A stretch of 64,000 nucleotides of DNA from Opitutaceae bacterium (GTDB taxonomy: Bacteria; Verrucomicrobiota; Verrucomicrobiia; Opitutales; Opitutaceae). Under the pieces are notes generated by a model that was not told the DNA's origin, made no database searches, and worked only from the letters and a program-made list of their open reading frames with translations. How positions within the stretch are numbered: position 1 is the stretch's first letter; the number at the start of each line of letters is the position of its first letter. Made by a program: the position numbers and the translations under genes. This document shows positions 36,245 to 37,246 of the stretch, piece after piece. The stretch covers positions 1 to 64,000 of the forward strand of contig JAUYAK010000113.1 of the NCBI GenBank assembly GCA_030693515.1. Reading direction: 5' to 3'.

Positions 36245-37246
36245 TCAGGCTTTCAGCCCCGGCTTCACGGCGCAAGGCATCGCCGAGACGCCGTAGCGGC
36301 GGTCGATGAAGCGCACGATCGGCGGCAGGCAAAGCGCGGCGCGGGCGAGCACGCGCAGGATGGGGCGGTGGCGCAGGGTCTTCACGACCTTGAATTGCAC
36401 TGCGCCGTCGTAGCGCACCGCGATCGGGTCGAGGCCGGCGCGGCGGTAGAGCGCGGTGAGCGCGCGCGGGTTGAAGAGGCTTACGTGGATCTCCGGCGCG
36501 CAGTAGCGGTAGGCGAGACCGGCCTGAAGTGCGGCGGGCGAATCGAGATTGCCGGTCGTGAGGAGGAGCAGGCCGCCCGGCTTAAGCAGGCGCCCGACGA
36601 GGCGCAACGCCTCCAGTGGTTCGGGCAGGTGCTCGATGACCTCGATCAGGCTGATGAGGTCAAAGCTGCCGTCGGGCTCCCGCGCCAAGGCGTCGAGGCC
36701 GAGGATGCGGAAGTTGTCGCGCTCGCGGAGCAGGTCGGCGTAGGAGCCGACGTCGTGGCCGGTGAGTTCGAGCGGCCGGCCGGCGATCGCGCCGCGTGCA
36801 CGGAGGAATTTCAAGAAGCCGCCGGCGCCGCAGCCGAAGTCGAGCCAGCGCAGCGGGGCTGCGCTGTGGACCAAAGGACGAGGTGCCAAGGGACCAAGGG
36901 ACACCGAGCCGGCCGAGATGCGAGGGTCTTGGTCTTTTGGTCGCTTGGTCTTTTGGTCCCTTAGTCTCTCGTCCGCGATGCGGACGAGATCCGCGAACTC
37001 GAGGCCGCGGTCGGTGGCGCGCCAGTCGTGGTATTCGGCCGCATAGTCTACGTAGGGGTCGGGGCCGGCGCCACGGTAGTAGGCATCGTCGTAGATGGCG
37101 AAGCCCGAGAAGGGCTCGACCTGCATGAACCCGCAGGCGGCGCAGGCATGGAACTCGAACTCGCGCCGCAGAAACGCCCCGGGCTTTTTCCCGCGCAACG
37201 CCACGGGGCCGAGGCCGCAGGCGCGGCAGACAGGGGCAGAGCTCAT
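36245..37246 (-). CDS. SAM methyltransferase with N-terminal zinc-ribbon-like CxxC..CxxC and a repeat-encoded insert
   Basis: CRACGLGPVALRGKK..HACAACGFMQ; WLDFGCGAGGFLKFL; insert RLRDQKTKRPKDQDPRISAGSVSLGPLAPRPLVHSA. Confidence 0.85.
   Translation of the reverse strand: MSSAPVCRACGLGPVALRGKKPGAFLRREFEFHACAACGFMQVEPFSGFAIYDDAYYRGAGPDPYVDYAAEYHDWRATDRGLEFADLVRIADERLRDQKTKRPKDQDPRISAGSVSLGPLAPRPLVHSAAPLRWLDFGCGAGGFLKFLRARGAIAGRPLELTGHDVGSYADLLRERDNFRILGLDALAREPDGSFDLISLIEVIEHLPEPLEALRLVGRLLKPGGLLLLTTGNLDSPAALQAGLAYRYCAPEIHVSLFNPRALTALYRRAGLDPIAVRYDGAVQFKVVKTLRHRPILRVLARAALCLPPIVRFIDRRYGVSAMPCAVKPGLKA
36867..36974. repeat. Inverted pair of degenerate ~8-bp repeat arms (GGTC type) inside a CDS, kept in frame
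   Basis: tggaccaaaggacgaggtgccaagggaccaagggac (36867-36902) and ggtcttggtcttttggtcgcttggtcttttggtcccttagtctctcgtcc (36925-36974). Confidence 0.85.

What the first reader, a model, noticed from the sequence alone, without database searches (positions are those of the whole stretch)
36867..36974. Same GGTC-type inverted array inserted in frame inside a methyltransferase
A second GGTC array 27 kb away lies inside the CDS at 36245-37246. It codes for RLRDQKTKRPKDQDPRISAGSVSLGPLAPRPLVH between the N-terminal zinc-ribbon-like part and the SAM motif WLDFGCG. Reading frame is kept. This recalls palindromic elements that become peptide linkers (for example Rickettsia palindromic elements), but with a short-period structure. 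Sharing a repeat word with 9552-9664 shows some words do spread within a genome.
Basis: partly seen in the sequence, partly recalled or inferred. Interest (0 to 1): 0.85.

Follow-up and report, generated by a model that had tools for sequence, protein, structure and literature searches.

The report
Short-word hairpin arrays inserted inside genes
A roughly 110-base hairpin built from an 8-base word, one of about six scattered in this bacterium's genome, sits in frame inside a methyltransferase gene and codes for a flexible linker; related bacteria carry hairpins built from other words in the same spot, so this is a recurrent way for scattered repeat DNA to become protein.

Summary
The array is real. 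It is an inverted array of the 8-bp word GGTCYYTT (left arm AARRGACC, right arm GGTCYYTT) inside a minus-strand methyltransferase gene. It codes for residues 94-127, a low-confidence linker between two well-folded parts. The own genome has about six such arrays; the other five lie between genes. Homologues show that the linker is a recurrent landing site: 12-77 aa long, carrying peptides of at least four words (GGTCYYTT, GGAGAAG, GGAGACR, ACTCGCT), with both arms in the predicted order and none in shuffled linkers. In all seven genomes tested, the word inside the gene is one dispersed in that genome. A second site in the neighbouring gene behaves the same way. The sister array at 9552-9664 lies at a stop/start junction that is empty in the two nearest relatives and filled by arrays of other words elsewhere. 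Closest published structures are the paired octamer/heptamer arrays of Geobacter metallireducens; I found no report of such arrays inside genes. How they spread is unsolved: word order inside arrays is shuffle-like, which argues against simple slippage, recent copying and inverted duplication.

The parts
36867..36974 (.). GGTC-type inverted array: left arm 36868-36902 (AARRGACC words), loop about 36903-36923, right arm about 36924-36974 (GGTCYYTT words)
   Evidence: RNA fold of the + strand z -5.3, of the coding strand z -2.7
36866..36967 (-). Array-encoded linker RLRDQKTKRPKDQDPRISAGSVSLGPLAPRPLVH, residues 94-127 of the methyltransferase
   Evidence: pLDDT 53-60
36245..37246 (-). Host gene: SAM-dependent methyltransferase with N-terminal CxxC/CxxC part, 333 aa
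9552..9664 (.). Sister GGTC-type inverted array at a stop/start junction; empty in the closest relatives G200 and G201
   Evidence: fold z -4.3 and -5.2
8776..9591 (+). Methyltransferase gene whose stop codon was displaced by the left arm of the 9552 array; array-encoded tail after KP: GPKDQRPRDQKT
9668..11857 (+). Gene starting 3 bp after the 9552 array (729 aa, no Pfam family); used to find the orthologous junction in 20 genomes
37243..40344 (-). Neighbouring large-protein gene (1033 aa, no Pfam family); orthologues carry GGTC-type arrays in frame at the point matching window 39211-39240 (LTRHTGAALV), where this genome has no insert

Best explanation
The segment is a member of a family of small dispersed inverted arrays of a short degenerate word (here NGTCYYTT, period 8) that was gained inside a protein-coding gene and is translated as a flexible linker. 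Such arrays mostly settle in the few bases between a stop and the next start codon. Occasionally they settle in a tolerant inter-domain or inter-helix loop of a protein. They can survive there because a word whose length is not a multiple of three reads as the same cyclic peptide in all three frames (KGPRDQGT on one strand, GPLVPWSL on the other) and the dominant word has no stop codon, so mainly the total length modulo three matters. Shown: dispersal, an empty site at the 9552 junction, recurrence of different words at the same sites, agreement of the in-gene word with the word dispersed in that genome, the fixed arm polarity, frame retention, and a predicted low-confidence linker. Inferred: that the arrays move as non-autonomous DNA, that recombination between arrays then shuffles their words, and that between genes the arms are bound by a word-specific protein or act as RNA hairpins. 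The enzyme that moves them is not identified.
For: Own genome: about six inverted arrays on five contigs, 19 hits against 1 in the reversed-pattern control. Empty/filled site: the 9552 junction is GCCCTAGCTG|ATG in G200 (87% aa) and equally tight in G201, but in G000 it is filled and the upstream stop is displaced. G031 (GGTC), G207 (7-bp GGTCCTT) and G202 (CACGAAAAA) fill the same junction with other arrays. MT linker: 12-77 aa over 112 homologues. Both arm peptides of a word, in order, in 18 (GGTC), 6 (GGAGAAG), 5 (ACTCGCT) and 3 (GGAGRC, all three also counted under GGAGAAG) of 115 linkers, reverse order 0, shuffled linkers 0. Pure words predict these peptides. On a tree without the linker, GGTC changes state at least 17 times and a single GGTC clade is rejected, p 2e-5. 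Word matches genome: G207 has 0 GGTC but 13 GGAGACN hits including its MT linker; G208 has 14 GGAGAAN hits including its linker; G204/205/206 carry GGTC in the neighbour gene and in the genome. Polarity: 22 of 22 GGTC pairs purine-left. Structure: pLDDT 53-60 for the insert. Arms at one shared site differ at 9 of 93 positions against 27.5% at fourfold sites, p 2e-5.
Against: No target-site duplication was seen. The Y1 transposase (RAYT-type) genes whose loci were fetched have no arrays beside them. Copies share no word strings beyond chance, which is not what simple copy-paste predicts. Some intergenic arrays sit at the same site in several genera, so part of the distribution is inheritance. 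At the MT site itself a clean pre-insertion sequence is blurred by turnover: L047 has a short pyrimidine-rich linker. In 400 kb of the array-rich genome G203 none of 14 arrays was inside a gene, so coding insertions are rare. Many MT-tree branches are weakly supported, so 17 is an indicator rather than a count of insertions.
Confidence: 0.8

Rival explanations
1. The arrays are not mobile. They are functional paired binding sites for a word-specific regulator (as proposed for Geobacter IHF/HU-type sites), kept and gained by selection between genes; the in-gene copies are by-products or regulatory sites inside genes.
For: Arms are more conserved than fourfold sites while the loop is not. Core positions GTC and TT are fixed while N and YY vary, the same in both arms. 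Spacing is 8 in 241 of 271 cases. Arrays abut start and stop codons. Geobacter precedent (PMC2700814).
Against: Does not explain why the same protein linker takes unrelated words in different species, or why word and genome agree.
Confidence: 0.35
2. The in-gene arrays arose on the spot by replication slippage in a low-complexity Pro/Ser-rich linker, without any incoming element.
For: Several homologues have simple pyrimidine-rich linkers (SPSPPLPLSPSS) that look like slippage products.
Against: Two inverted arms of one word, the agreement with the word dispersed in the genome, and no similarity of neighbouring words as slippage would leave (lag-1 z -0.84).
Confidence: 0.08
3. It is a REP/REPIN-type or MITE element moved by a RAYT or another transposase encoded in the genome.
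For: Palindromic, dispersed, about 110 bp, mostly intergenic; Y1_Tnp genes present in all 5 genomes tested, 7 in G000 and 11 in G203.
Against: None of the five fetched Y1_Tnp loci has GGTC arrays beside it. No GTAG/CGTC-type REP head was seen by eye, no TSD, and no sequence shared between copies beyond the word grammar.
Confidence: 0.2

Closest known systems
Rickettsia palindromic elements (RPE; Ogata 2000 and 2002, reviewed in PMC10969869)
   Same: Dispersed palindromic DNA of about 100-150 bp found in frame inside unrelated protein genes and translated as an extra peptide.
   Different: RPEs have long conserved family sequences and a conserved peptide. Here only an 8-bp (or 7-bp) word grammar is shared, word order is unique to each copy, and the same site takes different words in different species.
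Paired tandem octamer/heptamer sites of Geobacter metallireducens, classes 1-3 'predicted global regulator binding sites' (PMC2700814)
   Same: Tandem 7-9-bp words in two sets on opposite strands at variable distance, dispersed in the genome; one consensus is GTTGCTYN. The described orientation appears to be the same (inferred from the figure legend).
   Different: No in-frame coding copies of the paired sites are reported in the text read. The intergenic AND intragenic heptamer family there (GGGACCG x4, 49 places) is described as four tandem repeats, not as inverted pairs. Words differ.
TAACTGA heptamer repeats of Beggiatoaceae (PMC4679880)
   Same: Short-word arrays concentrated just upstream of start codons, a few inside ORFs.
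   Different: Direct repeats (one inverted case), with stop codons in all three forward frames; not inverted pairs.
REP/REPIN elements with RAYT transposases (PMC3733652, PMC3116915, PMC2817692)
   Same: Dispersed short palindromes, mostly intergenic.
   Different: No short-period arms; REPs carry conserved heads, which were not seen here.

Membership tests
Rickettsia palindromic element (RPE) | palindromic/inverted structure, about 100-150 bp | tested here: met
   inverted arms, 108 and 113 bp
Rickettsia palindromic element (RPE) | inserted in frame inside protein-coding genes | tested here: met
Rickettsia palindromic element (RPE) | conserved RPE family sequence and peptide shared by the copies | tested here: not met
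   Copies share only the word; longest shared word string 3 against 3.85 in shuffles
Geobacter-type paired short-word arrays | tandem 7-9-bp words in two sets on opposite strands with variable spacing, dispersed in the genome | tested here: met
Geobacter-type paired short-word arrays | binding by an IHF/HU-like global regulator | not testable with these tools
   Hypothesis only, in that paper too
REP/REPIN mobilised by RAYT | RAYT (Y1_Tnp) gene flanked by copies of the element | tested here: not met
   Y1_Tnp genes found, but no array in the five loci fetched; the other Y1_Tnp loci were not fetched
REP/REPIN mobilised by RAYT | GTAG or CGTC tetranucleotide head on a 20-40-bp palindrome | tested here: inconclusive
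   Not seen when reading about 30 elements by eye; no formal motif scan was run
MITE | terminal inverted repeats plus target-site duplication | tested here: inconclusive
   Inverted arms present; no TSD visible at the 9552 empty/filled pair, where both flanks have diverged

The most novel reading that the evidence does not exclude
Each new array is not a copy of an existing one but is freshly synthesised from a degenerate word template kept by the genome (an unknown, telomerase-like or recombination-driven word generator). Genomes then differ in the word they write, and the same tolerant sites, including protein linkers, are rewritten again and again with the word of the day.
Probability: 0.12. 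Interest if true: 0.95.

Novelty: new variant of a known kind. Interest (0 to 1): 0.72.

Why it matters
It gives a natural, replicated experiment in how scattered non-coding repeats become protein: one linker in one gene family has been filled with at least four short-word arrays, and a neighbouring gene repeats the pattern. It also exposes a simple rule: words whose length is not a multiple of three and that lack stops give one peptide in every frame, so they are pre-adapted to be tolerated in genes. Finally it poses a concrete unsolved question: what produces arrays whose words are shared across a genome but whose word order looks random, with a fixed purine-left/pyrimidine-right polarity.

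Tried and rejected
Rfam search of the window: no match. Search of the literature library for the exact words: no relevant paper. Inverted duplication of one arm into the other: rejected as a recent event, paired words do not mirror (mean z -0.32, SE 0.22). Slippage growth: neighbouring words no more alike than shuffled. Copy-paste of extant arrays: no shared word strings beyond chance. RAYT link: five Y1_Tnp loci without arrays. Search for the linker peptide in unrelated proteins of similar length returned only the query; short, variable peptides defeat the word index, so this is not evidence of absence. A genome-wide ORF scan of 400 kb of G203 found no in-gene GGTC array. All-six-frames openness is a property of the pure GGTCCCTT word only: real arrays have 0-4 open frames of six, and the N=A variant brings stops, so openness is permissive rather than selected. 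A possible common origin of the loops was considered but not tested.

Full report
WHAT IS THERE. The 108-bp array at 36867-36974 is confirmed: words of the form NGTCYYTT, period 8, in a right arm (about 36924-36974) and the reverse-complement words AARRGACN in a left arm (36868-36902), with a loop of about 20 bp. The GGTC pattern is enriched in the window 14 to 3.1. The host gene is on the minus strand, 36245-37246, an intact class I methyltransferase with an N-terminal CxxC/CxxC part. The array codes for residues 94-127. A predicted structure from 65 homologues is confident (mean pLDDT 87.6), but the inserted stretch falls to 53-60; it lies between helix 81-97 and the first strand of the Rossmann fold at 132-137. 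The insert is therefore probably a flexible linker.

THE FAMILY IN THE GENOME. The own genome (6.65 Mb, 130 contigs) has about six such arrays on five contigs, 19 pattern hits against 1 in the reversed-pattern control. Only 36867 is inside a gene; the others lie between genes, often directly at start or stop codons. In 200 genomes of the same family, 15 have hits. A stricter four-word pattern over 295 genomes of the phylum hits only the window's genus. One related genome, G203, has 317 hits. All 22 opposite-strand arm pairs examined have the purine word on the left and the pyrimidine word on the right. The same holds for ten pairs of the GGAGAAN/GGAGACN words, read by me from the coordinates.

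EMPTY AND FILLED SITES. The sister array at 9552-9664 gives the cleanest evidence. In the closest relatives G200 and G201 the junction between the two genes is only a stop codon and a few bases (GCCCTAGCTG|ATG; GCCCTAGCGTG|ATG), and it is similarly tight in G210, G213 and G204/G205. In the window's genome the array fills the junction, and the upstream methyltransferase now ends ...ARKP-GPKDQRPRDQKT, read from the left arm. The same junction holds a GGTC array in G031, an array of the 7-bp word GGTCCTT in G207, and one of CACGAAAAA in G202. No target-site duplication is visible, but both flanks have diverged. Other intergenic sites are shared between genera: the site upstream of MSWTDQPIFF in G000, G200 and G203; the murA leader in G000 and G203; and one site in G000 and G201. 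Inheritance therefore also plays a part.

THE METHYLTRANSFERASE LINKER IS A RECURRENT TARGET. Among homologues in genomes and metagenomes the linker at this one place varies from 12 to 77 aa, median 33. Translating pure words predicts cyclic peptides: GGTCCCTT gives KGPRDQGT and GPLVPWSL; GGAGAAG gives GEGRREK and LLPSPFS; GGAGACA gives GDRRQET and SPVSCLL; ACTCGCT gives TRYSLLA and SSE*RVA. These are the peptides observed. In the ACTCGCT type the predicted stop is replaced by H or Q (SSEHRVASSEH). Both arm peptides in the right order occur in 18, 6, 3 and 5 of 115 linkers for GGTC, GGAGAAG, GGAGRC and ACTCGCT; the three GGAGRC cases are also among the six GGAGAAG cases. Reverse order and shuffled linkers give none; shuffled words give none except for GGAGAAG, whose shuffles give 3, so that word is the least specific. 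At DNA level L056 has a two-arm GGAGACR array there, and L051 and L060 have GGAGAAN arrays. On a tree built without the linker, GGTC changes state at least 17 times, and holding GGTC-bearing rows as one clade is rejected (p 2e-5). The tree has many weak branches, so gains and losses cannot be counted exactly.

A SECOND TARGET NEXT DOOR. The large gene directly upstream (37243-40344, no Pfam family) has no insert here. Its orthologues in L060, L065, L073 and L053 carry GGTC arrays in frame at one loop (for example SRDQGTARDQGTKRLKDQGT...GPLVPWSLGLLVP), and others carry Pro/Ser-rich stretches at the same place.

WORD AND GENOME AGREE. G207, whose linker is GGAGACR, has no GGTC hit genome-wide but 13 GGAGACN hits in several places. 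G208, whose linker is GGAGAAN, has 14 such hits. G203, with a GGAGAAN half array in the linker and GGTC in the neighbour gene, is rich in both words. G204, G205 and G206, with GGTC in the neighbour gene, have GGTC and none of the other two words. In all seven genomes checked (G000 included) the in-gene word is one dispersed in that genome. This is the strongest argument that the linker came from a dispersed family and did not arise on the spot.

HOW DO THEY SPREAD? Not established. The words in an array look independently drawn: adjacent words are no more alike than shuffled ones, arrays share no word strings beyond chance, and the paired words of the two arms do not mirror each other. Arms at one shared site are nevertheless conserved (9 of 93 differences against 27.5% at fourfold sites, p 2e-5) while the loop is not, so the arms are under constraint there. 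My reading (inference) is insertion of non-autonomous DNA followed by word exchange between arrays, with a binding or RNA-hairpin role keeping the arms between genes. In-gene copies are tolerated where a protein is flexible. RAYT-type transposase genes exist, but those fetched are not beside arrays.

WHAT IS KNOWN. The closest published structures are the paired octamer/heptamer sites of Geobacter metallireducens (PMC2700814), proposed as global regulator sites. For the coding effect, the closest are the Rickettsia palindromic elements (reviewed in PMC10969869). I found no report of paired short-word arrays inserted in frame in genes, but the library holds only open-licence papers.

Noticed in passing
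window 23707-23808: Another inverted purine-left/pyrimidine-right array of a different word (GTGAAAGGGAAAG...CTTTCACTTTCAC), apparently between two genes.
   Followed up: partly
window 15948-15979: 7-bp tandem array GGTGATG lying just before the conserved start (RRGIILAGGSGTRL) of a minus-strand nucleotidyltransferase-like gene; it either extends the protein (NHPSPMTHHPSP) or is leader DNA.
   Followed up: partly
window 14961-15061; L112 2175-2270: Two copies of a different dispersed hairpin, TGTCATTCTGAGCGAAGCGAAGAATCCA...TGGATTCTTCGCTTCGC..AGAATGACA.
   Followed up: no
window 13915-13990 and 54148-54220: Two copies of a hairpin family AGTAGGGCGGGTC...GACCCGCCCTACT about 40 kb apart.
   Followed up: no
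L228 (G203 C92:51282-51526): A long array whose word drifts along its length from AAGAGACT (8 bp) through CAGAGAC and CCACGGA to TACCGAC (7 bp): a visible path from one word to another.
   Followed up: no
P0098 linker: The same methyltransferase linker carries a quite different repeat peptide (VVPPSGGIRLQAPTILPPEGGTT) in one homologue, so other repeat families may also land there.
   Followed up: no
L111 6733-6809: Inverted array of ATCGAAAATCG words with the opposite polarity (pyrimidine-left), the one exception seen to the purine-left rule; its word is partly palindromic.
   Followed up: no
L055 895-967, L070 3905-4117, L120 10460-10526, L082 3894-4010: Intergenic inverted arrays of further words (CGCGGATGA, CACGGATTA, CACTAATGA, TTTGGCGTTTGG), so this is a wider class of elements in these genomes.
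   Followed up: partly
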